Shown: positions 670-62,923 of the stretch, piece by piece
Layout: every line of letters starts with the position of its first letter
Position numbering within the stretch: position 1 is the stretch's first letter
DNA from: Cytidiella melzeri
Lineage: Eukaryota > Basidiomycota > Agaricomycetes > Polyporales > Irpicaceae
Reading direction: 5' to 3'
DNA: 64,000 bases
Assembly (NCBI GenBank): GCA_022592445.1
Contig: JABYQR010000141.1
Span: 1 to 64,000 of the forward strand
Program-made: the position numbers and the translations under genes
The notes under the pieces: model-generated
Seen by the model: only the letters and a program-made list of their open reading frames with translations
Databases searched by the model: none
Told to the model about the DNA's origin: nothing

Positions 670-1714
670 GTCTCTTCTTGAGGTCGGCGTTCTCCGCCCT
701 CAACTTCTCCAGTTCTCCTAGCACGGCCTTGAGTGTCACTTCTGACACTCCCGACGAGCTCGACGCTTCTTCCCTCTCAGGCTTCTTTTCTTCGGCCCGA
801 GAAGAAGATACCTCTCCAGTGGTAGAAGCCACACGAGACCCTCGAGGTGGTGGACGTGGAACTGCCGGCTTGGTGCACGTGCGTGCAATGTGACTAGGAT
901 CGGTGGTAATTTCTTGGCAGTTGTAACACCGCCGACCTTGCTGCATTTTGGAGGCATCGACCTCCATGGGAACCGGACCGTTAGAAGAACGGGGAACCGG
1001 AGTAAACCTGGGCTGAGACTGGGTGGGTCTCGACGTAGTTGACGGGGGAACAGACGGAGTTTTCTTTTCCGTTGTTTCCCTGATGCGGGCGTATGCAGCC
1101 GCCATTTTCAGGGACCTATCAATCCAGCCTTGGTAATTGGCCGGAGGTGCTTCGGCCGTTGCCAGCCGCCCATAGATGTATTCAGGGAGACCCTTGATGA
1201 ACCGGATCTCCTTGTCCTTGTCGCTTAAACCATTGATGCGTCCCACGTATGACTGGAAGTCAGTGACGTATGTACCGACATCCCGCGCGTTCTTTTCCTT
1301 CTTTTCAGCTCCACAGAGCTTCTCCAGTTCGCGAATGGCAGTATCCTCGGGCGTTGCATCGCCGAAGTACTTCTTGAGCTCAGTCTTAAACTTGGCCCAT
1401 GTATCGAGGTTGGCCGGCAAATCACCGTTGTGATCAGCCATATGGTCCGTGACTGGTGTTGCCCATTGGGCAGCCTTCTCTGACAACCGGTAAATTGCTG
1501 TCAGGACCTTGGTTTTTTCATCGGTGATACTGGCGGTCACCCAGTAAGCCTCGCATTGTGACAGGAACCGCTCTAAGTCGCGGCCATGTTCGCCCTTGTA
1601 TCTATCGGGCTTGGAGTCGTTATTGTTGACCGTGACTTGCGGTCTCGGCACTGCTTGTGCGACTGCAGCTACAATGGCTGCAATCAAGGCAGGATCGACC
1701 GCGGGTGTTGTCAT
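653..1714 (-). CDS. gag: Element A Gag from its first AUG
   Basis: Gag forms the virus-like particle of the element. The start given is the ATG at 1712-1714, the first ATG of the predicted transcript; the same frame is open upstream to 2084 without another Met. From that start there are 353 residues. An Ala/Pro-rich beginning is followed by a Retrotrans_gag-type capsid region (D-L-E-R-F-L-S-Q-C onward), then one zinc knuckle CYNC-x8-H-x4-C, in which the middle spacer is 8 residues instead of the usual 4. The C-terminus is a short charged coiled coil ending E-E-G-F. The stop TGA at 653-655 directly follows a GGGTTTT slippery heptamer, so Gag-Pol is expected by -1 frameshift. No internal stop is present. 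Confidence 0.85.
   Translation of the reverse strand: MTTPAVDPALIAAIVAAVAQAVPRPQVTVNNNDSKPDRYKGEHGRDLERFLSQCEAYWVTASITDEKTKVLTAIYRLSEKAAQWATPVTDHMADHNGDLPANLDTWAKFKTELKKYFGDATPEDTAIRELEKLCGAEKKEKNARDVGTYVTDFQSYVGRINGLSDKDKEIRFIKGLPEYIYGRLATAEAPPANYQGWIDRSLKMAAAYARIRETTEKKTPSVPPSTTSRPTQSQPRFTPVPRSSNGPVPMEVDASKMQQGRRCYNCQEITTDPSHIARTCTKPAVPRPPPRGSRVASTTGEVSSSRAEEKKPEREEASSSSGVSEVTLKAVLGELEKLRAENADLKKRLEEGF
656..662 (-). promoter_or_regulatory. Putative -1 frameshift heptamer GGGUUUU before the gag stop
   Basis: On the minus strand the zero-frame codons GGT TTT are preceded by G and followed at once by TGA, giving G GGU UUU UGA. This fits the X XXY YYZ rule. Element G has the same heptamer at the same place. 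In this copy the -1 frame closes soon, because of a probable later indel. Confidence 0.5.
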
Positions 1715-1957
1715 TGTGATGGGGGAAACGGTTTGAATGGGTAGAGTTTTGGGGGTGATGGGAGCAGTGATGGGGTCGGGAACAATGGGGGTGACGTCTG
1801 GTAAAACCGGTGGGATTTCCGGTACAACTAAACTGGTATCAACTTCGATTTCTTCAGGAACTCCGACAGTTAACGGAATTTGACTGTTATCACAGGGTAC
1901 GTAACCGGAGTATCGTTGTCCTTGTCTGAAATGACGAGATACCACAAACTTTTGCCT

Positions 1958-2068
1958 TCGATTTGGACACGGCTGCTGTTCGCAGACTTCGATATACGCG
2001 TGGTCCTCTTCGTTATCGTGACAATCCTGAAGATCGTCGGGATCGAAGACGTGGAAATGATTATCGCA
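1958..2068 (-). other. CHCC motif upstream of gag AUG (C-x4-H-x-F-x20-C-x4-CPNR)
   Basis: The region between the ORF0 stop and the gag AUG is open in the gag frame and encodes a Cys/His motif that ends C-E-Q-Q-P-C-P-N-R. C1, C2 and element G have the same spacing of C, H, F and the final C-x4-CPNR. In element A this stretch is in the same frame as both ORF0 and gag; ORF0 is separated from it by two adjacent TAG codons. A zinc-binding role is inference from the conserved Cys and His residues. Confidence 0.65.
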
Positions 2069-2086
2069 CTCAATGATTGCTATCTA

Positions 2087-2776
2087 CTACAAAGGGAGTT
2101 TCTCAAAATAACCTCCGTCTGCTACAAATGCAACTCGACTCGTGACCTCTGTCAACCTCTTGCGTAATTGCGTGAAGTTGATCTGTCCTACTGACTGCAA
2201 GCCCCAGTTCAGTGCTTTGAGCTGGGCAGGCGTGCGTGTGGAGAGTACTTCCTCCGTATGCTCTGTGAGGTACAGAAGCTTGTCGTTGAGTAGCAGGACT
2301 GACTTAACCTGTGAGTCGTTGCGGTCACGGGTAAGCTCGATCAGGATCTTGAGGCGTCTGGTGGTGGCCTCGATCTTCGGCTTGAGAATGCCGACTTGGT
2401 CCTTGATAGAGAACTTATGGAAGTCGAGTGTCGCTGGTTTCTGTGCGTCCAGTCGAGGTGGTGCGGGTGCCCGGGAGATGCGATCCTTGAGAGATGGTTT
2501 CTCAATACGGTCGGCGAGAGTTTGCGTACGTTCGGTGCGTGTGCGTTCCTTGATAGACTCGTTGTCACGAGCAAACTTTTCGTGGTCGAAGTGGGGGAGT
2601 CTAGTACCGAGAGGATGGTAGTGAGGACGGCGTGACTCTGTGTAGAGATGGGGACGACCTTGTTTGCGCAGTTCTTGTCGAGCCTCGAAGAAAGACTCGG
2701 GTACGTTACGACGGATGCGTACGTCTTTCGGCACTACAACCACGACGTGAGAATGAAGATCAAGGGTCCGGGCCAA
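2087..2776 (-). CDS. ORF0 of element A: conserved Met-free leader ORF
   Basis: This 229-codon open frame between the 5' LTR and gag has no ATG in it. The listed start is a TTG; conservation with family C begins at the GTG of V-P-K-D near 2732. Shared blocks with the C-family ORF0 (43104-43832) include T-L-A-x4-K-P-x-L, K-P-x3-D-F, a V-G-I-x-K-P-K block, L-x-W-G and F-x-Q-L-R-K, ending near Y-F-E. The protein is charged, with predicted helices, no membrane segment and no catalytic motif that I recognise. The ORF ends in TAG TAG and gag lies in the same frame beyond. Real coding is supported by conservation between two divergent element families; how translation starts is unknown, with non-AUG initiation the simplest idea. 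I do not recognise the family. Confidence 0.75.
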   Translation of the reverse strand: MARTLDLHSHVVVVVPKDVRIRRNVPESFFEARQELRKQGRPHLYTESRRPHYHPLGTRLPHFDHEKFARDNESIKERTRTERTQTLADRIEKPSLKDRISRAPAPPRLDAQKPATLDFHKFSIKDQVGILKPKIEATTRRLKILIELTRDRNDSQVKSVLLLNDKLLYLTEHTEEVLSTRTPAQLKALNWGLQSVGQINFTQLRKRLTEVTSRVAFVADGGYFEKLPL

Positions 2777-2880
2777 TACAACGTACTGGTAAACCGGGGG
2801 GACTAAACTTTTAAAAACTTTGGGGAAATGAAATGTGCGGTTGCACGACGTCCAGGCGAGCGTACGGAGATTCTACCTAA
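2777..2880 (-). other. Element A leader and primer-binding region
   Basis: Between LTR and ORF0 the minus strand begins TTAGGTAGAATCTCC, probably the primer-binding site, and contains GTTTTTAAAAGTTTA at 2806-2820. The same 15-mer is present in the C3 leader at 43003-43017. No ATG is present. Confidence 0.5.
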
Positions 2881-10940: not shown

Positions 10941-11468
10941 ATGTCCGCTGCGTCTACCAACGACAACCCGCCTCGAGTCTGCCGTTACTGTCCAACTGTT
11001 CCCCACCTACCCGACGGTCGCTGCCCTTACCGCCCGCGCCCGCGCGAGGTTCTACGCCGTTACCCCATCATCCCCGCGCCCACGCCGCCGCCAGAACCCG
11101 CAGCAGCGCCTACGGTCTCCCCTGCGAGATCAACTCCTAAATCACCCTTGCCAGCGTCGTCCGTCGCCTCCGTCGCGGACTCGCTTGAAAACTGCTCTTA
11201 CTGCGATACTCAGAGCGATCATCCAATTCCCCTGCGTTCAGGACCTTTCGTCCCGCTCGACTGCGATCGCCCGCGCGCGCCGCACCCAGATTGCTGGCTA
11301 TCTCCAGACTTTGAAGGCGAGGAGCACGAGTGCGAACTAGTACAGTTCAATCTTACCAGCTCAGCCAACGTCGTCGTTGGCCACGCATTTGCCTGTAATA
11401 CGCATCGCCGTTCGGGAGGTGTTGTTCTACACTACCGCCCCCGCGCGCAGTCTGTCGAGTCCACTTGA
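10941..11468 (+). CDS. Repeat X ORF, copy 1: unknown Cys-rich protein
   Basis: 175 residues from a proper ATG. The N-terminus has C-x2-C-x10-C (V-C-R-Y-C ... G-R-C-P-Y-R-P). A Pro-rich linker follows, then N-C-S-Y-C-D and a C-terminal globular-looking part with W-L-S-P-D-F-E-G and an ending G-G-V-V-L-H-Y-R-P-R. The second copy (19528-20052) is also uninterrupted and differs at roughly 27 positions, with a one-codon indel, so the frame has been kept while the sequence diverged. That suggests protein-level selection. The CxxC pairs could bind zinc (inference). I do not recognise the family; it is not gag, protease, RT, integrase or a known transposase. Confidence 0.65.
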   Translation: MSAASTNDNPPRVCRYCPTVPHLPDGRCPYRPRPREVLRRYPIIPAPTPPPEPAAAPTVSPARSTPKSPLPASSVASVADSLENCSYCDTQSDHPIPLRSGPFVPLDCDRPRAPHPDCWLSPDFEGEEHECELVQFNLTSSANVVVGHAFACNTHRRSGGVVLHYRPRAQSVEST

Positions 11469-18934: not shown

Positions 18935-20270
18935 TTGAAACACTGTGGTACGCTCCGAAACTAATTACAACCCCAAAGACAACACTACCAACCACGAAGT
19001 GGCAATAGAAGTGTAAGGGCGTGGGAGTGCGGTAGTGTGAAAGTGTTCGAGGTGGTCTTTAGAGTCCTAGTTTACCTGTGCTGCCAAAGAGCGACAAGGT
19101 TTGTGATAAAGGTTTTGTTTAAATTGAGCTAGGAGGGTAAGATACCACGCGTATCACGGGCAAAGGGGATAGGCGGGGCAGTGAAAGTGAAAGAGGTTTA
19201 GCGCAGCGCAAAGAGAACACGTGCAAGATGCCGCGGCTTGTAGTAAAGACGACGCGCGGAAAGATGCGGAGGGTGAACGTGGACACAGTACAAATCTCAA
19301 ACACAAAACGCGGTCGCTAATGAAGATGAAAGTAGTCGCTGTAAAACGTGGGCGCAGTGAAAGTGAACGCAGTAAGCTCGATGCAGTGAAGGTAAAACGC
19401 AGATGCAATAACGCAGTAAAATAATGCAGGTAAGAAATAGACGCAGTGCAATGAAACCAGAAGAGTCACAAACAGAAGATGAACTATTGGGGCGCGAGAC
19501 GCAGCGTAAGGCTATATAGGATCGCAGTCAATTTGACTCGATAGACTGTTCGCGGGGGCGATAGTGCAGAACAACACCTCCCGAGCGGCGGTGCGTGTTG
19601 CAAGCAAATGTGTGGCCAACGACGACGTTTGTGGAGCTCGTGAGATTGAACTGTACAAGTTCGGACTTGTGGTTCTCGCCTTCAAAATCCGGCGAAAGCC
19701 AACGATCTGGGTGCAGCGTGTGCGGGCGATTGCAGTCGAGCGGAACGAAAGGTCCTGAGCGCAGGGGAATTGGGTGGTCGCTCTCAGTGTCGCAATAAGA
19801 GCAGTTGTCAAGCGAGTCCGCAACGGAGGTGATGGACGACGCTGGCAAGGGTGATTTAGGAGTGGATCTCTCAGGGGAGACCGTAGGCGCTACTGAGGGT
19901 TCAGGCGGCGGCGTAGGTGCGGGGATAATAGGGTAACGGCGAAGAACCTTGCGGCGCGGGCGGTATGGGCAGCGACCGTCTGGTAAGTGGGGAACTGTTG
20001 GACAGTAATGGCAAACACGAGGCGGTCTGTCAATGGTAGGTGCAGCGGACATAAACGTAGAGAAAGACGCAATGAAGCAACGCAGGAGATGCTACAGCTT
20101 TCGACATGAAGAGACTCCCTCAACGCGAGCACAAGGTGGGAAGGAACTCTGAGAACTGGGGCCGGGATTGATTGATTTCTACACAGTACAGGCAACACCT
20201 TTTATATACCTAAGCCCCTCTCCTAAACCTTTCCTTCTTTGTCCTAAACCCAAACGCGAGAGCAAGGAAA
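18935..20270 (-). repeat. Repeat X, copy 2 (X2)
   Basis: Inverted second copy of X. Its 3' end (CGTTGAAACACTG on plus) abuts the truncated B LTR. Its 5' end abuts CACTG and then the LTR end of element H at 20276, so H may have inserted into X. The TATA box is at 20201-20210 and the ORF at 19528-20052. It is diverged from X1 by both substitutions and indels outside the ORF. Confidence 0.75.
19528..20052 (-). CDS. Repeat X ORF, copy 2
   Basis: 174 residues from ATG (20050-20052), uninterrupted. It keeps C-H-Y-C ... G-R-C-P-Y-R-P, the Pro-rich linker, N-C-S-Y-C-D and the C-terminal block seen in copy 1. The only length change is a single codon in an Arg/Pro stretch. Both copies being open after about 15 percent protein divergence is the main evidence that the protein is functional. 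Function is unknown; see the X1 entry. Confidence 0.65.
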   Translation of the reverse strand: MSAAPTIDRPPRVCHYCPTVPHLPDGRCPYRPRRKVLRRYPIIPAPTPPPEPSVAPTVSPERSTPKSPLPASSITSVADSLDNCSYCDTESDHPIPLRSGPFVPLDCNRPHTLHPDRWLSPDFEGENHKSELVQFNLTSSTNVVVGHTFACNTHRRSGGVVLHYRPREQSIESN

Positions 20271-34276: not shown

Positions 34277-35003
34277 TAGATCCACTCAAAGTAGCTATCA
34301 CTATTGACTACGGTAAGTTGCGCTAGAACTCTATCGTAATTTTTACGAAGCTGCTTGAAAAAAACTTTCCCAATTGCTTTGCAACCCCAGTCCAGGAGCT
34401 GCCACTCGTGGTCTGCTGTGACGGGTGCAAGATCGTCAACTCAGTTGAGGAAACGATTACCTTGTTCACAAGATGGAGCAAGGCACAACAATGGTCGGGG
34501 TTTGCGCGATTTAGGAGTTCTTCAAGCTCAGTGAGAGCTTGCAAGCAAGTGCGGACGGCGGTAAGTTTCGGCCTGAAGATGCCTACAAGATCAACCGGTG
34601 ACAACTGCTTGAAGTCGATCAACACCGGCTTTGGTGCAGCGGGGGCGGGAGTTGGTGCAGGGAGCTTTGCTAGTCACTCTGCAAAGGTGAGCTGGTGGGT
34701 CTGTTGCTCAGCTAAGGTGCGATCACGCTCCTCAGCAGCTCGTTCTCTTTATGCTTGTGCAGAGGCGCGGAGTTGGCGATTTTCCTCGTATGAGGGGATG
34801 GTGAGGGTGATGCCTTTGACAGGCGGCTTCTTGGACACGTACTTTGCAACAGTGAGCAGGTCTTTGTCAGACCAGCGATGAGGTTGACTGCTCTTCCGCT
34901 TGTCAGCGAGAGCGTCAAGGAAAGATGGTGGAAGACACCTCTTGAGCTGAGGCTCAGTGGTAGGGAGGGTCTTGGAGAAACGGGGGCGCGTGTCTTTAGG
35001 CAC
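34277..35003 (-). pseudogene. ORF0 of C1, frameshifted
   Basis: Starts at the conserved GTG of V-P-K-D (35003) and keeps the S-Q-P-H-R-W-S-D-K-D and K-P-P-V-K-G-I-T blocks. It is broken in the middle and near the end but keeps the end Y-F-E-W-I*. One ATG is present in the leader (35015-35017), opening a four-codon ORF; otherwise the leader is ATG-free as in C3. Confidence 0.7.
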
Positions 35004-35149
35004 TAAACAACGCGCATGGGGTAGAAACGGACGACGTAAGTGTAGCTCAACGGTATGAGGAGACTGGAGACGTACTTGTCAAACAGGAATAAACTTTTTT
35101 AAACGGTGGGAGTGGGGGACCCAGGGTTTACACAACGATCTCGACCTAA

Positions 35150-37222: not shown

Positions 37223-37368
37223 TTAGGTCGAGATCGTTGTGTAAACCCTGGGTCTCCCACTCCCACCGTTTAAAAAAGTTTTTTCCTGTTTGGCGAGTAC
37301 GTCTCCGGTCTTATAATACCGTTGAGCTACACTTATGTCGTCCGTTTCCACCCCCTGCGCGTTGTTTA

Positions 37369-38097
37369 GTGCCTAAAGACACGTGCCCCCGTTTTTCCAA
37401 GAACCTCTCTACCACTGAGCCTCAGCTCAAGAGGTCTCTTCCACCATCTTTCCTTGACGCTCTCGCTGACAAGCGGAAGAGCAGTCAACCTCATCGCTGG
37501 TCTGACAAAGACCTGCTCACTGTCGCGAAGTACGTGTCCAAGAAGCCGCCTGTCAAAGGCATCACCCTCACCATCCCCTCTTACGAGGAAAACCAACAAC
37601 TTCGCGCTTCTGCCAGAGCATACGGAGAACGTGCCGCTGAAGAACATGCTCGCACTCTAGCTGAGCAGCGAACCCACAGGCCAACTCTCTCTGAGCGGCT
37701 CGCTAGACTTCCCCCACCCACTCCTGCTTTTGCTGCACCTAAACCGGTGTTAATAGACTTCAAAAAGATATCACCGGTTGATCTTGTCGGCATCTTCAGG
37801 CCAAAACTCACCACGGTTCGCACCCGCCTACAAGCTCTCACAGAGCTCCAAGAACTTCTCAACTGCGCAGACCCCAACCACCGTCGTGCGCTACTCCATC
37901 TCGTCAACAAAGTTAATCGCTTCCTCAACCGACTTGACGAACTTGCACCGGTCACAGCAGACCGCGAGTGGCAACTCATAGACTGGGGTTGCAAAGCAAT
38001 TGGGAAGGTTTTGTTTAAGCAGCTTCGTAAGAACTATAGCAAAGTTCTTGCGCAACTTAACGTAGTTAACAACGATAGCTACTTCGAGTGGATTTAG
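37369..38097 (+). CDS. ORF0 of C2: conserved Met-free leader ORF
   Basis: 242 codons from the GTG of V-P-K-D-T to TAG, with no ATG in frame. The N-terminal half is Pro/Lys-rich (F-L-D-A-L-A-D-K-R, H-R-W-S-D-K-D-L). The middle is a charged helical region (E-H-A-R-T-L-A-E-Q). The C-terminal half has D-F-K-K, V-D-L-V-G-I-F-R-P-K-L, L-L-H-L-V-N-K-V-N, L-I-D-W-G-C-K-A-I-G-K-V and F-K-Q-L-R-K-N-Y. The end overlaps the next frame (CHCC-gag) by one codon at a -1 offset. Two out-of-frame ATGs (37334 and 37646) are point changes against C3. No known domain is recognised. Confidence 0.7.
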   Translation: MPKDTCPRFSKNLSTTEPQLKRSLPPSFLDALADKRKSSQPHRWSDKDLLTVAKYVSKKPPVKGITLTIPSYEENQQLRASARAYGERAAEEHARTLAEQRTHRPTLSERLARLPPPTPAFAAPKPVLIDFKKISPVDLVGIFRPKLTTVRTRLQALTELQELLNCADPNHRRALLHLVNKVNRFLNRLDELAPVTADREWQLIDWGCKAIGKVLFKQLRKNYSKVLAQLNVVNNDSYFEWI

Positions 38098-42269: not shown

Positions 42270-42958
42270 TGTCATGGATGGCCTGACTAGCCCTTAATTT
42301 TCGCAATTTACCTCTTGTTTTTATCTGTAAAACTCCGGGCTACAACCTAGTTTCAATTCTCTTCGCATAAACTCCTTTGTACGTCTATTAAGCGCCCGTA
42401 TCACGTGGCTTAGACGCTCCACACGGTCACATTACTTGCTACTACGTCACACTGGCATGTGACTTAGCTTAAGTAAGACCACATGGCTACAAGCACATGG
42501 CTCAGCCCATAGCTAGGGTTTGACGTCATAGATACCGTCCACATGGACTCCTTATTGTTCTTTCCCTATTGTTCTCTTTATGGAAGGATGTTCTCACAGG
42601 TGTGGGAATGGAATACAATAGTTGGTCTCCTTTTAGATAGATTCTCTCACGGGTAGAGTTCTTGGCAAGGTCTAGACAATAGCTATTGTTCTCCTTTAGG
42701 TAGTTCTTTTGTTCCTCGTTCACACGGCTTCTTGCAAAGCCTGCCCTCAACATGGTCTGTGCGCAGGTCCCTGAAGTCTATATATACTGCTGCATGTACG
42801 CTCCTAGCCCCCATCTCGACCTCTTGGTCTTTACTGGGCTAGGTATCTGCATAAGGTTTATAGCTGGTGAGAGTATTGAGCTTCACGCCTACCACCACCA
42901 CTTCGTCGTCATCCACTTCGTGTCCCTGTTTGTCACGTCGAGCCTTGTCTCCGTGTCA
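42270..42958 (+). repeat. 5' LTR of C3 (short form)
   Basis: 689 bp, TGTCATGG to CCGTGTCA, TATA box TCTATATATAC near 42778. It lacks the intron-like segment. No ATG lies between 42797 and its end. Confidence 0.9.
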
Positions 42959-43103
42959 TTAGGTCGAGATCGTTGTGTAAACCCTGGGTCCCCACTCCCA
43001 CCGTTTTTAAAAGTTTATTCCTGTTTGACGAGTACGTCTCCGGTCTCTTCATACCGTTGAGCTACGCTTACGTCGTCCGTTTTCACCCCCTACGCGTTGT
43101 TTA
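42959..43103 (+). other. C3 leader and primer-binding region
   Basis: Starts TTAGGTCGAGATCG, identical in C1 and C2 and close to A. Contains GTTTTTAAAAGTTTA at 43003-43017, shared with element A. There is no ATG. The end TTGTTTAG just before ORF0 resembles a 3' splice site. Confidence 0.5.
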
Positions 43104-43832
43104 GTGCCTAAAGACACGCGTCCCCGTTTCACAAAGAACCTCCCCACAACTGAGCCTCAGCTCAAGAGGTGTCTTCCTCCATCCTTCCTCGACGCTCTCG
43201 CTGACAAGCGTAAGAGTGGTCAACCTCATCGCTGGTCTGACAAAGACCTAGTCAACGTCGCCAAGTACGTATCCAAAAAGCCGCCTGTCAAAGGCATTAC
43301 CATCACTGTCCCCTCTTACGAGGAAAATCAACAACTTCGCGCTTCTGCCCGAGCCTACGGAGAACGCGTAGCAGAAGAACGTGCTCGCACACTAGCCGAG
43401 CAACAAACCCACAAGCCAACTCTTGCTGAGAGGCTTGCCAAACTTCCCCCGCCCACTCCGGCTCCCGCTGCACCAAAGCCGGTGTTGATCGACTTCAAGA
43501 AGTTGTCACCGGTTGATCTTGTAGGCATCTTCAAGCCAAAACTTACCGCCGTCCGCACTCGCTTGCAAGCTCTCACAGAGCTTGAAGAACTCCTGAACCG
43601 CGCCAATCCCGACCACCGTCGCGCCCTGCTCCACCTCGTCAACAAGGTCAATCGTTTCCTTAACCGAGTCGACGATCTTGCACCCATCACAGCAGACCGC
43701 GAGTGGCAGCTCCTGGACTGGGGTTGCAAAGCAATTGGGAAGGTTTCTTTCAAGCAGCTTCGTAAAAACTACGATAGAGTTCTAGCACAACTTAACGTAG
43801 TCAATAACGATAGCTACTTCGAGTGGATCTAG
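43104..43832 (+). CDS. ORF0 of C3: intact Met-free leader ORF
   Basis: 242 codons, GTG of V-P-K-D-T-R-P-R to TAG. It is the cleanest C copy: no stop, no Met codon, and no ATG in any frame from about 42797 to the gag ATG at 43902. It shares conserved blocks with ORF0 of element A (V-G-I-x-K-P-K, L-x-W-G, F-x-Q-L-R-K, Y-F-E). It has no membrane span or signal peptide. The lack of ATG would let scanning ribosomes reach gag while ORF0 is made by rare non-AUG starts; this is inference. The alternative, a purely structural leader, does not explain protein-level conservation between A and C. Confidence 0.75.
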   Translation: MPKDTRPRFTKNLPTTEPQLKRCLPPSFLDALADKRKSGQPHRWSDKDLVNVAKYVSKKPPVKGITITVPSYEENQQLRASARAYGERVAEERARTLAEQQTHKPTLAERLAKLPPPTPAPAAPKPVLIDFKKLSPVDLVGIFKPKLTAVRTRLQALTELEELLNRANPDHRRALLHLVNKVNRFLNRVDDLAPITADREWQLLDWGCKAIGKVSFKQLRKNYDRVLAQLNVVNNDSYFEWI

Positions 43833-43901
43833 ACAGTCCACAGTTTTTACCACGTCTGTAAATAATTGTATACATTTCTACGCCTCATCACAGCACAAGA
43901 C

Positions 43902-45153
43902 ATGGACCAGAATCAACAGCCCGCTGCCCCTGCTGCTCCAGCTGCCCCAGTTGCCAATCTGAGCCAGCAAGACGTCCTAAATATATTGGGCGTTCTGTCA
44001 CAAAGGATGATTGACCTCACCAATCAAGTGGCTGCCTTGGCAGCTGTTCAGGCACCAGCCGTCGCCGCGGCCACGCACACGTCCCGAGAACGGAGTATTG
44101 TCGAGAAGCCCGTCTCTTTTAAAGGAAAAACGTCGTCGGAAGCAAGACTTTTCCGGCATGCTTTCATCGTCTGGGCTCAGAACCAGGGCAAGGCGTTTTT
44201 CCAACAGGACGCGCAAGGCCAGGTCCGAGTGGACAACAATGGCGCGAGGATCTTTGATCCTCACAAGCTCATCACCAGTGCTCTGTCGTTCATGCAAGAC
44301 GACGCCGCCGACTGGGCTCGCCCTCATATTGAGGAGCTAGCAAACAGCAAACCAGCTTTTGGCAACAGCTGGGACACCTTCATCGAGGCTTTCAAAGCCA
44401 AATTCGAACCCATTGACGCTGTCATGGAGGCAAAGACAAAGATTGCCAACATGAAGCAGGGTAATAAAACCTTCGCCGCTCATATCTCGGAGTTTGAGAC
44501 TTGGGCCCCTCGCACTGGCTGGAGCCAGCAGGACCTCTTCGATCGCCTCAAGTCAAGCTTGAGCACCGAGTACTTGCAACGTGTCTCGTACTTCCAAACT
44601 CGCGCAGCCACGTACGACGCACTCAAAGATCAGTGCAAGGCGGTCGATGCCCAGCTTGCCGACCTTCGCAATAGCACAGGCAAGGTTATGGTGGACAGTT
44701 CGTCAGGGACACGGCAAGTCCCACCAACAAGCGTTCCGCGATCCCAACGCTATGGAGATCGACGCCTCTCGCTTCTCCGCCTCGTTTGACGCCCTCTTTG
44801 CTGGACTAGGAAAGCAGGAGATCTTCCAGAAATGGAAGAAAGAGATGAGCAAGCGCTGCTCGGTTTGTGGTTCGGAGAATCACAAGAAGAGGGATTCAAA
44901 GCACCCAGACGACCCGGTCTGCAACCATTGTGGTGGTACCGGTCATTGGGGGGCGGTTTGCCTGAAGCGACTCCAAGGCGTCCCTAAGGGACAAAAAGTT
45001 GCTGCTACCTCGTCGACCTCGTCGACTACTACCCCGGCGAAGCAAGACGCGTCCAATGACAAGGATGCTAAGATTGCGGCACTCAAGGACATGCTTGACA
45101 TCCAAAAGAAGCAAATGGATGAGATGGCAGCCAAAATCAATGCGGTTTTTTGA
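43902..45153 (+). pseudogene. gag: C3 gag, one frameshift
   Basis: ATG at 43902 (M-D-Q-N-Q-Q-P-A-A-P). Coiled coil, S-I-V-E-K-P-V-S-F-K-G-K, and a capsid region complete with E-A-F-K-A-K-F-E-P-I-D. An extra base near 44700 shifts the frame; the remainder (to 45153) has both zinc knuckles and the D-M-L-D-I-Q-K-K-Q-M-D-E-M coiled coil. The CHCC segment present in C1 and C2 has been deleted here between ORF0 and the gag ATG (43833-43901). T6 plus TGA at 45146-45153 is the frameshift site. Confidence 0.88.
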
Positions 45154-49099: not shown

Positions 49100-49856
49100 T
49101 GTCATGGATGGCCTGACTAGCCCTTAATTTTCGCAATTTACCTCTTGTTTTTATCTATAAAACTCCGGGCTGCAGCTCAGTTGCAACCTTCTCTGCACAA
49201 ACTCCTTTGCACGTCTATTAAGCGCCCGTATCACGTGGCTTAGACGCTCCACACGGTCACATTACTTGCTACTACGTCACACTGGCATGTGACTTAGCTT
49301 AAGTAAGACCAGATGGCTACAGACACATGGCTCAGCCCATAGCTAGGGTTTGACGTCATAGATACCGTTCACATGGACTCCTTTTGTTCTTTCCTTATCG
49401 TTCTCTTTATGGAAGGATGTTCTCACAGGTGTGGGAATGGAATACAATAGTTGGTCTCCTTTTAGATAGATTCTCTCACGGGTAGAGTTCTTGGCAAGGT
49501 CTAGACAATAGCTATTGTTCTCCTTTAGGTAGTTCTTTTGTTCTTTGTTCACACGGCTTCTTGCAAAGCCTGCCCTCAACATGGTCTGTGTGCAGGTCCC
49601 TGAAGTCTATATAAGATGCTGCATGTACGCTCCTAGCCCCCCATCTCGACCTCTTGGTCTTTACTGGGCTAGGTAAGCAACCCCCTCTTGTACTACATAG
49701 CTGGTAGTAACAATACTAACTTGGTCTTTACTGGGCTAGCAACTTGAACAAAGTCTGATAGCTGGTGAAAGCATTGTGCTCTACGCCTGCCACCACCTCC
49801 TCGTCGTTTTCCACTCCGCGTCCCTTTTAGTTGCGTCGAGCTTCGTCTCCGTGACA
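49100..49856 (+). repeat. 3' LTR of C3 (long form)
   Basis: 757 bp, TGTCATGG to TCCGTGACA. Its last ~120 bp differ clearly from the 5' LTR of the same element, and it carries the intron-like segment, so the two LTRs did not arise in one reverse-transcription event or were converted later. Confidence 0.85.
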
Positions 49857-59131: not shown

Positions 59132-62100
59132 TCAGTGTGATGTTCTTGAGATATCCAGACCAATGTGTTTGCCTTCATCCCAGCTAAGATCGTATGTAGA
59201 TGGATAGATCGTGCAAAGGAAAGCGGGGTCGGTCTGGGTATTGAATTCCCGAAAGTACGAGCAGAGATCCGCGAAGAGTGAAGCTTTGATGACCCAGGGC
59301 ACTCCGGGGTTTGCTTTGTAGAAGTTGTCAATTGCTTCTTGACTATTCTCGAGGTTTTCTACTGGTTCCCAGCTATTGTGTCCGTCTGAATACCCTTCCC
59401 ATTTGACTAGGAATTGTAGCTTCTTCCATCGTCCGTGTAGCCTGCTGTCTAGCACCTTCTCAACGACGTACTGCTCTTCTCCTTCTATGACGATAGGATC
59501 AGGAGGTGGAGGTACGTCTTTGCCGTTGTTGTGCCAGGGACTTAGACGGTTGATATGAAAGACGGGGTGGATTTGGAGATAGCTGGGTAGATCAAGTTTG
59601 TAATCAAGATCGCCAATGCATTTGATGACCTTGTACGGGACGAGTTGTGGAGGACCAAGTTTAGGGGTAGCCTGGTGGATCTGGACGTTTTTAGCGTTTA
59701 GCCAGACCATGTCCCCTACTTGGAAGACGCATGGAGAGCGTTTCTCAGACTCGTAGAGTTGTTTTATCTTTTCTTTGCTTAGACGAAGAGCTGCTTTGGT
59801 CTCCTTGCGTACTCGAGCCATGTTGTCAAGGCGCTCATCGAGCGACGGGATATTGCTTCGCTTGCCGACTGGTATGGTAAAGTCGGGGCAATATCCGTAG
59901 ATGACCTCAAACGGTGTTTGTGAATTACCCGCATGTACTCGCAAGTTGAGTGCAAACTCAGCCGCCGGCAGATGATCAACCCAGTCGTCTTGTTGTTGCT
60001 GACAGCATAGACGCAGGTACTGTTTGATATCCTGGTTTTTGCGTTCAACTTTGCCATTTCCTCGCGGATGATAGGCGGTCGTAAAACCAGTCTCTATGCC
60101 TAAGCGGTGATAGAGCGCACGCATGAAGCACACTGCAAACTGGGGTCCTCGGTCAGAGAACACCTTCTTGGAAATGCCGTGAAGTTGGAATACTTCTTTG
60201 CAATGTAGATCGGCAATCCCCTCAGCGTTAACCTTAGTGGTGGTAGGGATAATGTGTGTTTGATCGGAGTAATGGTCGACGTAGACCGCGATCGAATCAA
60301 ATCCCTTAGAAGGTGGTAGCTGAGTGATGAGATCTACTCCGACGTGTTCCCAAGGTCCGGCCGGAGTTTCCTGAGGCTGTAGTACTGCTTTAGGGTGCGG
60401 AGCTGACTTATAGCGTTGACAGCGATTGCAGCCTAGTACGTAAGTCTCTACGAAGGCATTCATCTTCGGCCACCAATAGTGTCGTGAGACTAGCTCTATG
60501 GTGCAGTGTTTGCCCGGATGACCAGCCGCGGGTATGTCATGGCAAGATTTGACGATTTCGTGACGGAGCTCTTTGTTGTTAGGGATGTAGAGTTTTCCCT
60601 TGTAGTAGATGAGTCCGTCACTCTCTTCCCATTTGAGTAAACCGCCGACAAGTTTGCGAGGACCCTTCTTTCAAAGGGTAGCAAGAGCTTGTGCGACTTC
60701 TGCTTCTTGCTCCGTGCATTCTCGGATCTTTGATTCAAGTGGAGAAGCAGTGGCGAGTGCACTGGCAGCGAGGATCCGGAAGTGTTCCGGTTTCAGTACT
60801 ACCTGATCCTTGTTGTCTTCTTCATCCGTGACAGCGTGTGAGTGAAGACGAGAGAGAGGATCAGCGTGTATCATGGTACTACCAGGCTTGTGTACCAACA
60901 TGAAGTCAAAGTCAGCCAAGAGTAATGACCAATGTGCTTGACGTCGAGTGAGGTGTTGCACAGTTTTCCAGTACTGCAGGTTTGCGTGATCTGTCCAGAT
61001 CTCAAACGGTTCCTTGAGCCCCTCAAGGTAGGTGCGCCAATCTTTGAGAGCTTTGGTGATGGCTAACATCTCCCGATCAAATATTTCGTAGTTACGCTCG
61101 GCTTCAGTCATGGATGCGGACCGGTAGGCGATAGGGTGGTAGAATCCATCTTCCTTCGATTTCTGGGAGATGATTCCACCAGTCGCATAGCCTGAAGCAT
61201 TGACTTCTAGACGTGTAGGGAGTTCAGGGTCCCAGACTGCCAAGATAGGCTTAGTGGTAAAGGCCTTCTTTAGCAACATGAAGGCTGTCTGCTGTGCTGG
61301 ACCCCAGACGAACGGCACATCCTTCTTAGTAAGGTCGTGTAGAGGCCGTGCGTGCTTTGAGAAGTCTTGAATGAAGTGTTGGTAGAAATTGGCAAACCCT
61401 ATGAACCCTCTAACTTCTTTGAGGTTCTGGGGTGTGGGCCACGTAGAAACTGCTTGGACTTTGACAGGGTCCATAGCTACTTCGCCGGCGCGAATGATCA
61501 ACCCGAGGTACTCGGTCTCAGATTTCTCAAACTCGCACTTTTCCGGCCGAAGGTAGAGGTCGTGCTGTTGAAGTCGCTTGAGGACTTCATGTACAACCTT
61601 GCGGTGCTCTGTCAGGTTGTTGCTCCAGATCAAGATGTCATCTAGATAGACAGCCACCTTGCCCTCGGCGACAAGGTCGGCGAAGATGTTGTCCATCAGA
61701 GCTTGAAAGGTAGCGGGTGAGTTTGTGAGACCAAAGAACATGACTTTAGGTTCAAAGAGTCCTTGGTTGGTAACGAACGCCGCTTTGTACTCGTCTCCTT
61801 CTTTGATTTGAACATTGTGATATCCCCAACAAACATCGAATTTAGTGAAGATCTTTGCACCCTTGAGCTTGTTGATAATGTCGGTAGCAAGCGGTAGGGG
61901 GTAGCAATTCTTTACCGTGATGTCGTTGAGTTTGCGGTAGTCCTGAATAAGTCGGAGTTTGTTGTCCTTCTTTTTAATGAAGAAGACTGGAGAAGCCATC
62001 GGAGTCTTAGAAGGCGTGATGTAACCTTTTGACAGGTTCTCCTGAATGAACTTGTCAAGCTCGGCTTGTTTGTTCAGGGGCATAGGATAAACTTTCAATT

Positions 62101-62923
62101 TGATTGTCTCAGGAGCGTCTGGTTTGAGATCAATCGAATGGTCCCAGGGCTGATGCTGGGGTAGCCGATCAGACTCTTCCTCAGAGAAGACTTTAGCGTG
62201 TCTGTGATACTCTGATGGAACGATGTCTTCGAAGGAGCGCTGGGCTTTAGCTTTGTTTGCTTCGGCAGCTAGCTTGGTAGAGTAGGTGAAGCCGGCCATA
62301 CACCAGACTTTGTCAGTGGTGTCTTGGATAATCCCGGCTTTGACCCACCGCCTACGTTCTTTGCGATTACTGTCAACCTTTTGGAAAGGTTCGTCAGGAG
62401 ATTCTTCCTAGCCGCTCGGAATTGTCATTTCTCCTTTTTCCCAGTTAACAGTAGGGTTTACGCGTTTGAGCCATGGTAGCCCAAGAATGACATCCTCTGG
62501 ACCTAAGTCCGTGACAAGAAATTCTGCCTTTTCAGTGTGATCTCCGACTGTGAGTGTAAGGCGAACGAAGTGCGTTAATCCGCCAGCTTTATTCTTAGTT
62601 CCGTTAATGTTATGCAATGAGATAACCCTTTCGAGCGGGTGCTGAATAATCTTATGCTTCTTGACAAACTGGTGGCTGATGAATAAAGCTGTAGCTCCTG
62701 AATCGATCATTGCAGGAACGCGAATGCTTCTATTCAGACCTTTAACTAGTACATGTACACGGAAATGAGATGATAACCGATCTAGCAATGATATAGTACA
62801 CGAGGAGATAGTAGACGTTGTACATGAAGAAGACGAGGCAGAAGACGAGGAAGACGACGAAGGAGACAGGGACAGGGTATCAGGGGAACTCGCAGCTGCG
62901 GCTGTGTCATGAGTCCGCTTCAA
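59132..62923 (-). CDS. pol: C4 Pol polyprotein (protease-RT-RNase H-integrase-chromodomain), two nonsense codons
   Basis: One frame of 1264 codons entered by -1 shift from gag. Protease I-D-S-G-A-T near 62690, with G-P-E-D-V-I-L-G. TAG at 62408-62410 (TCG in C1). RT with [32 protein letters not shown] at about 61640. RNase H E-V-N-A-S-G-Y (first Asp changed to Asn) and T-D-H-A-N-L. TGA at 60671-60673 (CGA in C1 and C2). Integrase zinc domain with C-N-R-C, core V-D-L-I-T-Q, S-D-R-G-P-Q-F, K-V-E-R-K-N-Q-D. GPF-like block (G-P-P-Q-L-V-P-Y) and chromodomain E-K-V-L-D-S-R, V-K-W-E-G-Y-S, W-E-P-V. Apart from the two stops it is complete. Confidence 0.92.

What the first reader, a model, noticed from the sequence alone, without database searches (positions are those of the whole stretch)
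42797..43901. ATG-free leader that nevertheless encodes a conserved 242-codon protein (ORF0)
In C3 I found no ATG in any frame from just after the TATA box to the gag ATG at 43902, about 1.1 kb where roughly 17 would be expected at equal base frequencies. Yet this stretch holds an uninterrupted 242-codon frame whose protein is conserved in C1, C2 and, more distantly, in element A. Removal of all ATGs together with protein conservation suggests two constraints: ORF0 translated from a non-AUG codon (the GTG of V-P-K-D is where conservation starts) and scanning ribosomes kept free to reach gag. It recalls upstream non-AUG gag extensions in some retroviruses, but here it is a separate frame or is ended by stops.
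Basis: partly seen in the sequence, partly recalled or inferred. Interest (0 to 1): 0.9.

Follow-up and report, generated by a model that had tools for sequence, protein, structure and literature searches.

The report
Start codon made only by splicing
In a group of fungal jumping genes, the unspliced RNA carries no start codon before its capsid gene, and removing one short intron appears to stitch together the start codon of a conserved extra protein, so splicing would decide which of two proteins the same RNA makes.

Summary
In detail: C3 has no ATG from 42797 to 43901, and ORF0 there is a conserved protein. The non-AUG explanation is not the best one. A 73-nt GT-AG interval (43032-43104, branch-like CTTAC) lies in the leader; exon 1 ends in A and exon 2 begins TG. 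Joining them makes ACG-ATG-CCT-AAA-GAC, so ORF0 would start MPKD at the codon that unspliced DNA shows as GTG. I wrote this junction down, then searched the genome: of 240 places with both flanks, 7 lack the interval, all at exactly that junction. A second family, about one third identical in ORF0, has the same donor, acceptor and ACC-ATG-CC junction, but no spliced copy was found. Ten of 20 database relatives start MP(K/R/A). Leaders are purged of ATG (9 seen, 213 expected in 31 copies; 14 against 265 in 24), and ORF0 dN/dS is 0.07-0.08. Best reading: unspliced RNA is scanned to gag, spliced RNA makes ORF0. What ORF0 does is unknown; a Rev- or CERV-like role is a guess. No RNA was examined. 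The host is Cytidiella melzeri or something very close.

The parts
42270..42958 (+). 5' LTR of C3 (TGTCATGG...GTGTCA)
   Evidence: sequence read; repeats D6 and D9
42779..42786 (+). TATA box; the last ATG before gag (42794) lies just after it and is probably upstream of the transcription start (inferred)
   Evidence: in the second family the last ATG overlaps the TATA box itself
43020..43031 (+). end of exon 1, CCTGTTTGACGA; its last A (43031) is the A of the ORF0 start codon after splicing
   Evidence: spliced copies
43032..43104 (+). 73-nt intron GTACGT...CTTAC...TTGTTTAG, ATG-free in C3, retained in most genomic copies
   Evidence: exactly absent in 7 of 240 places
43070..43070 (+). candidate branch-point A in CTTAC, 34 nt before the intron end
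   Evidence: motif match only
43105..43832 (+). exon 2: TG of the start codon, the rest of ORF0 (242 codons with the A of exon 1), stop TAG 43830-43832
43833..43901 (+). ATG-free spacer between ORF0 stop and gag; in longer copies it holds a Cys-rich segment (CDNC...CPNR) in the gag frame, lost in C3
43902..44789 (+). gag, first AUG of the unspliced RNA, context GAC-ATG-G; Retrotrans_gag hit
49100..49856 (+). 3' LTR next to C3; holds a 67-nt intron-like unit (GTAAGC...TACTAAC...CTAG) that the 5' LTR lacks
2087..2733 (-). exon 2 of ORF0 in the second family (m1), stop included; this copy is 30 nt shorter than its best matches
2734..2786 (-). 53-nt intron of m1, GTACGT...CTCAC...GTAG; A of the start codon at 2787
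34990..35087 (-). exon 1 end, intron (with one ATG) and ORF0 start of a third, damaged C-family copy
37368..38097 (+). ORF0 of copy C2 (exon 1 end mutated; leader has ATGs at 37335 and 37646)

Best explanation
C3 and its relatives are chromodomain Ty3/Gypsy LTR retrotransposons that use one leader intron as a switch. Unspliced RNA has no AUG before gag, so a ribosome scanning from the cap passes about 1.1 kb (including the intron and the whole ORF0 coding region) and starts at gag; this RNA is also the genome. Removing the 73-nt intron joins exon-1 A to exon-2 TG, makes an AUG with A at -3 (ACG-AUG-C in C, ACC-AUG-C in m1), and that RNA makes the 242-aa ORF0 protein. Shown: the leader is ATG-purged, ORF0 is under purifying selection, splice signals are shared by two diverged families, and exactly spliced C-family copies exist in the genome. 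Inferred: the transcription start, that gag is reached by scanning unspliced RNA, that ORF0 is made only from spliced RNA, and that m1 splices too. Guess: ORF0 helps unspliced RNA to leave the nucleus or to be packaged.
For: The junction was written down from the sequence and searched (up to 2 mismatches): 8 hits, of which 7 are copies with the intron exactly gone and 1 (L068 = L024) is a different change. Any-gap control: all 7 places with 0-30 nt between the flanks are that junction, 1 place has 31-61 nt (an internal 19-nt deletion), 232 have 62-92 nt; reversed-pattern controls 0. The spliced copies lie in different subfamilies; L063, L064 and L065 are closer to a sampled unspliced copy (99.6, 97.2, 97.5%) than to each other (81-95%), so probably five or more separate events. 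In 6 of 7 LTR sequence and TATA are in place with no ATG between TATA+30 and the junction AUG. Donor GTACGT in 33 of 34 C and 26 of 27 m1 rows, acceptor YAG in 33 of 34 and 27 of 27 (rows were picked by a pattern that includes donor variants); in the donor-blind list, 91 of the 100 places shown have GTACGT and 98 have GT (by eye). C intron lengths vary in phase. ACG to ATG is nearly absent in ORF0 (4/443 and 9/526 cells) while other NCG to NTG is common (424/2012 and 169/1005; column tests p 0.0033 and 0.0069); in gag ACG to ATG is 40/276 and 110/440. No Met in 9,399 residues of 39 C ORF0s and 3 in 6,048 of 27 m1 ORF0s, against 1.85% and 1.34% in gag. Of 20 database relatives, 10 begin MPK, MPR or MPA, 9 of them with no further Met.
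Against: No RNA was examined. No spliced m1 copy was found (0 hits; 105 places, the 100 listed all unspliced). In m1 the GTG has G at -3 in 27 of 27 and the intron is always 53 nt, so a non-AUG start is less excluded there. Whether the database relatives come from RNA or DNA is not known. Leaky scanning past the ORF0 AUG on spliced RNA would also select against ATGs. ATG avoidance inside the intron is weakly shown: 0 ATG in 34 C rows, but 8 of the 100 places shown have an ATG in the visible part of the intron (by eye), and in m1 3 of 45 ACG cells became ATG. In C-family gag the ACG column test is also low (OR 0.25, p 0.026), so part of the CpG signal is context. Two of the seven spliced copies (L061, L067) have ORF0 broken by other DNA. 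The copies studied are the best-scoring of 923 and 699 candidates, which favours intact frames.
Confidence: 0.85

Rival explanations
1. ORF0 is translated from a non-AUG codon (GTG of VPKD) on unspliced RNA, as the AUU-started ORF I of rice tungro bacilliform virus is.
For: The frame is open through the intron in C3 and in many other copies (267 codons); in m1 the GTG has G at -3 in 27 of 27; RTBV is a precedent (passages of PMC5902531).
Against: -3 is T or C in 34 of 34 C copies and C intron length is not kept in phase; it does not explain the exact GT-AG losses or relatives that start MPK.
Confidence: 0.05
2. The intron is spliced in most RNA; gag is reached on spliced RNA by leaky scanning past the ORF0 AUG or by reinitiation.
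For: An AUG-free ORF0 would help this too; the junction AUG has C at +4, gag AUG has R at -3 in 38 of 38 C and 24 of 24 m1 copies; 8 of 100 places shown carry an ATG in the intron.
Against: 233 of 240 C places and the 100 listed m1 places keep the intron, so the RNA that becomes genome is mostly unspliced; the intron is ATG-free in 34 of 34 C rows; ORF0 is long for reinitiation (recalled).
Confidence: 0.12
3. ORF0 is also, or mainly, joined to Gag by frameshift, readthrough or a second splice, giving a Gag with an N-terminal extension. This could coexist with the switch.
For: In m1, 22 of 24 copies have at least 80 open codons before the gag ATG in the gag frame, dN/dS 0.25, and gag is in the ORF0 frame in 19 of 24; the Irpex protein P0015, and in part P0016, run from ORF0 into a similar Cys-containing segment.
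Against: The gag frame is random relative to ORF0 in C (16/11/11); 26 of 27 m1 ORF0s end in a double stop; most C copies have lost the segment.
Confidence: 0.08
4. The seven intron-less copies arose by ordinary DNA deletion, and the match to GT-AG is chance.
For: Other deletions do occur in these elements.
Against: All 7 short-gap places share one junction without direct repeats at its ends, with no near miss in the same search, and they lie in different subfamilies.
Confidence: 0.01

Closest known systems
Cer1 CERV (C. elegans Ty3/Gypsy element; PMC10309623, passages seen, among them parts of the abstract)
   Same: LTR retrotransposon whose extra, lineage-restricted protein comes from a spliced mRNA while unspliced RNA makes Gag and is the genome
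   Different: CERV is made of five exons and shares peptides with Gag; the passages seen mention no start codon assembled at a junction and no AUG-free ORF; its export role is tested, ORF0's is not
Rice tungro bacilliform virus and badnaviruses (PMC5902531, passages seen)
   Same: Long upstream ORFs devoid of internal AUG so that ribosomes scan about 900 nt to the main ORF; a spliced RNA makes another protein
   Different: RTBV ORF I starts at AUU by leaky initiation; here the AUG appears only after splicing
BARE (barley retrotransposon; PMC3735527, abstract seen)
   Same: Separate RNA pools, one spliced, for translation and replication
   Different: There splicing favours Gag from a single ORF; here splicing would turn Gag off and ORF0 on
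SpIREs of human L1 (PMC5860796, abstract seen)
   Same: Genomic copies made by reverse transcription of spliced element RNA, mostly dead ends
   Different: L1 is a non-LTR element (recalled), and the abstract describes no splice that makes a start codon
Fungal chromoviruses (Ty3/Gypsy with chromodomain)
   Same: gag, protease, RT-RNaseH, integrase, chromodomain
   Different: ORF0 and the leader switch; I recall no described member with them, and the listings showed none (titles and abstract starts only; 20 of 219 papers listed)

Membership tests
Ty3/Gypsy chromovirus | gag, aspartic protease, RT-RNaseH | tested here: met
   Pfam hits in C3 and in a related copy
Ty3/Gypsy chromovirus | integrase after RT, with chromodomain | tested here: met
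   tested on a related copy, not C3: window 59132-60670 minus, downstream of RT 60671-62407: Integrase_H2C2, SH3_Tf2-1, Chromo; rve 25.1 bits is below its cut-off of 32.6
Ty3/Gypsy chromovirus | RT phylogeny within the clade | not tested
   no tree built
Retroelement with accessory protein from spliced RNA (CERV/Rev kind) | protein made from a spliced RNA | tested here: inconclusive
   strong but indirect: exact spliced retrocopies in the C family; no RNA or protein seen
Retroelement with accessory protein from spliced RNA (CERV/Rev kind) | protein needed for export of unspliced RNA | not testable with these tools
   needs localisation and knock-down
Retroelement with accessory protein from spliced RNA (CERV/Rev kind) | sequence or fold related to Rev or CERV | tested here: inconclusive
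   no Pfam hit for C3 ORF0 and only marginal ones among relatives; no fold match at E<=0.001 in PDB or viral models, but the model is weak (pLDDT 71.5, pTM 0.43) and CERV itself was not compared
RTBV-type leaky scanning | upstream long ORF free of internal AUG | tested here: met
RTBV-type leaky scanning | that ORF starts at a non-AUG codon | tested here: not met
   splice-made AUG in the C family; poor GTG context in C, not in m1
SpIRE-like spliced retrocopies | exact loss of a GT-AG interval in copies with element ends | tested here: met
   6 of 7 with LTR sequence and TATA in place; 3' ends not examined

The most novel reading that the evidence does not exclude
The element has a two-state timer built from one start codon: early RNA is spliced, which creates the AUG of ORF0; ORF0 is a new kind of regulator that blocks splicing of, or exports, element RNA, so that later RNA keeps the intron, has no AUG before gag, and makes capsids and genomes. 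The coding sequence of ORF0 itself has been rid of AUG in all three frames so that it can double as a 5' leader.
Probability: 0.3. Interest if true: 0.9.

Novelty: new variant of a known kind. Interest (0 to 1): 0.78.

Why it matters
If true, splicing does not choose between exons here but makes or unmakes a start codon, which turns one RNA into either an accessory-protein mRNA or a gag mRNA and genome. It makes an old question (how retroelements sort RNA between translation of different proteins and replication) directly testable with a 73-nt intron in a fungus, and it points to a conserved protein family with no convincing Pfam match, found in two families of one genome, in four Irpex rosettiformis protein records, and in other sequence sets. 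Gene finders may miss or misbuild such proteins, as the Irpex and Cytidiella records with other N-termini suggest.

Tried and rejected
Non-AUG start: see rivals. Upstream ATG exon: rejected, since the last ATG lies at or just after the TATA box. Antisense: only its ATG counts were taken, not depleted. Frameshift or readthrough from ORF0 to gag: rejected for C (frame random), unlikely for m1 (double stop). Deletions of the Cys-rich spacer as further introns: alignment of 18 C copies shows no shared GT-AG ends. The 67-nt intron-like unit in the LTR (GTAAGC...TACTAAC...CTAG) is missing from 5 of 38 C leaders and, in its m1 form, from L054 of five m1 leaders printed, but it is flanked by a tandem repeat, so recombination gives the same product; I do not count it as evidence. 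Structure of ORF0: helical, low confidence, no match. PDB sequence search: nothing significant. Viral-contig scan: no relative. Paper searches for split or splice-made start codons and for ORFs before gag: searches found no paper, searches listed one unrelated paper each.

Rows dropped: L068 (same place as L024), L071 and L072 (no donor match: L071 has a changed donor, L072 another exon 1), L039 and L049 (exon-1 end differs; donors GTACGT and GTACAT), L045 (exon-2 start differs) from the feature set and all counts built on it; L007, L008, L069 (C) and L047, L048, L055 (m1) from the ATG count because TATA or gag start was not found; L061 and L067 from the ORF0 alignments because other DNA interrupts ORF0.

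Full report
The stretch 42797-43901 has no ATG on the + strand; 6.2 would be expected from dinucleotide content and 13.0 from base content. Of the six longest ATG-free runs named in my notes for the window, four lie in ORF0 leaders and two in another element-like family. The 242-codon frame is real and ends at TAG 43830-43832.

What the element is. C3 lies among many LTR elements. Its gag, protease and RT match Pfam; a related copy at the right end of the window has RT-RNaseH followed by integrase and a chromodomain, so these are Ty3/Gypsy elements of the chromovirus kind. The genome has 49.7 Mb in 731 contigs. A protein of Cytidiella melzeri (Polyporales, Irpicaceae) matches one place in it at 99% over residues 7-188, so the host is that species or one very near it.

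ORF0 is a conserved protein. The first look found 923 candidate places for C3 ORF0 and 699 for the diverged ORF0 at 2090-2764 on the minus strand; only the 150 best of each were scored, which favours good copies. Within the C family dN/dS is 0.08 (39 copies, 741 pairs), within the second family, here called m1, 0.07 (27 copies, 351 pairs); in the wrong frames 1.7-3.7. The two families are 32-35% identical in ORF0. Searches with alignments reached further relatives, among them four Irpex rosettiformis records. C3 ORF0 has no Pfam hit, its relatives only marginal ones.

The leader is under selection against ATG. Of 31 C copies, 23 have none between TATA+30 and gag, 9 ATG in all against 212.8 expected; of 24 m1 copies 19 have none, 14 against 265.3. 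The antisense strand and gag are not depleted. A test that controls for composition: C-to-T change at CpG is common in these copies, but where it would create ATG it is nearly absent in ORF0: 4 of 443 cells in C and 9 of 526 in m1, against 424 of 2012 and 169 of 1005 at other CpGs. In gag the same change is found in 40 of 276 and 110 of 440 cells; the C-family gag columns show a shortage too (OR 0.25, p 0.026), so part of the effect in C is context. ORF0 has no Met after its first codon in 9,399 residues of C and 3 in 6,048 of m1, against 1.85% and 1.34% in gag.

The start codon. In both families the conserved protein begins at V(GTG)-P-K-D. Looking at the DNA before it, both have A|GTACGT 53-73 nt upstream and YAG|TGCC at the GTG, that is a GT-AG interval of the size of fungal introns (recalled) with branch-like CTTAC or CTCAC inside. 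Joining exon-1 A to exon-2 TG gives ACG-ATG-CCT-AAA-GAC in C and ACC-ATG-CCG-AAA-GAC in m1: an AUG with A at -3, in frame with ORF0. I wrote this down and searched the genome for the junction. It was there: six copies with TTGACGATGCCTAARGACAC and one with TTGACAATG; an eighth hit with two mismatches is another change. As a control I searched for any spacing between the two flanks: 0-30 nt gave 7 places, all that exact junction; 31-61 nt gave 1, a copy with a 19-nt deletion inside the intron; 62-92 nt gave 232; the reversed patterns gave none. So 7 of 240 places have lost exactly this interval. The spliced copies belong to several subfamilies, and L063, L064 and L065 each have an unspliced relative 97-99.6% alike; in 6 of 7 LTR sequence and TATA are in place and no ATG precedes the junction AUG. 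Two of the seven have ORF0 broken by other DNA. This is what reverse transcription of spliced RNA leaves behind, as described for L1 SpIREs (abstract of PMC5860796). In m1 no spliced copy was found (one search lists 100 of 105 places, all unspliced).

Other facts. C-family intron length is 73, 72, 74, 70 or 54 nt, so the frame upstream is not kept; in m1 it is always 53. The donor is GTACGT in 33 of 34 C and 26 of 27 m1 rows and the acceptor YAG in 33 of 34 and 27 of 27; these rows were chosen with a pattern that includes donor variants, so the donor-blind list is the better guide: 91 of the 100 places shown have GTACGT, 98 have GT (counted by eye). In that list 8 of 100 have an ATG in the visible part of the intron. 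One copy, L024, has lost the G of the acceptor, which by itself makes ATG in the DNA. Of 20 relatives in the protein database, 10 begin MPK, MPR or MPA, and 9 of those have no other Met; the rest begin elsewhere, being shorter or having other N-termini. Whether those records come from RNA or DNA I could not learn.

How it would work. Unspliced RNA has no AUG before gag, so scanning ribosomes would reach gag, whose AUG has a purine at -3 in 38 of 38 C and 24 of 24 m1 copies. Spliced RNA starts with the ORF0 AUG. The RNA that becomes genome must mostly be unspliced, since the intron survives in 233 of 240 places. The switch between capsid and ORF0 is therefore splicing. The alternatives, non-AUG initiation, leaky scanning on spliced RNA, and an ORF0-Gag fusion, are weighed in their sections. 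What ORF0 does is not shown. The nearest functional precedent I read is CERV of Cer1, a protein from spliced RNA that is needed for export of unspliced genomic RNA (PMC10309623, passages); an element with a retained intron faces the same problem. The ORF0 model is helical with low confidence and matches nothing.

Novelty. AUG-free upstream ORFs are known from rice tungro bacilliform virus (passages of PMC5902531), separate spliced and unspliced pools from BARE (abstract of PMC3735527). A start codon assembled at a splice junction as the switch in an LTR retrotransposon did not turn up in my searches; these cover open-licence papers only, I saw titles and abstract starts, and three of them listed 20 of 413, 319 and 219 papers. 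I call it a new variant of a known kind.

Limits. No RNA, ribosome or peptide data; transcription start inferred from the TATA box; copies are related and the best-scoring ones, so counts are not independent; initiation-context rules, fungal intron sizes and branch motifs are recalled, not taken from a call.

Noticed in passing
window 10941-11465 (+) and about 19531-20052 (-); L075-L078: Another element-like family has a 175-aa Cys-containing ORF with an ATG in poor context (TTTATGT), followed by at least 1,129 nt without any ATG in 4 of 4 loci (L075 is the window copy); 479 first-look candidates in the genome, no Pfam hit.
   Followed up: partly
window 1714-2083 (-); m1 loci: Between ORF0 and gag m1 keeps an ATG-free segment in the gag frame (CDNH...QPCPNR...), dN/dS 0.25 over 22 copies with no wrong-frame control; a related CDNC segment is present in long C copies, and a similar one in an Irpex protein. 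How it could be translated is unexplained.
   Followed up: partly
49673-49739 in the 3' LTR; same place in most C leaders, a similar unit in m1: Intron-like unit in the LTR with a TACTAAC or TACTAAT branch motif, flanked by a tandem repeat of its 3' end in both families; absent from some 5' LTRs, C3 included.
   Followed up: partly
42270-42958 and 49100-49856: The two LTRs of C3 differ clearly in the part after the TATA box and have no matching target-site duplication by eye, so C3 may be a recombinant or have a replaced flank.
   Followed up: no
42958-42967: Directly after the 5' LTR both families share ATTAGGT(C/A)GA instead of the usual TGG-starting tRNA primer site (recalled); the primer is unknown.
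   Followed up: no
L024 (C65:92699-92795): A copy whose acceptor G is deleted, so that the unspliced DNA reads ATG-CCT at the ORF0 start; its ORF0 is open to the usual stop.
   Followed up: partly
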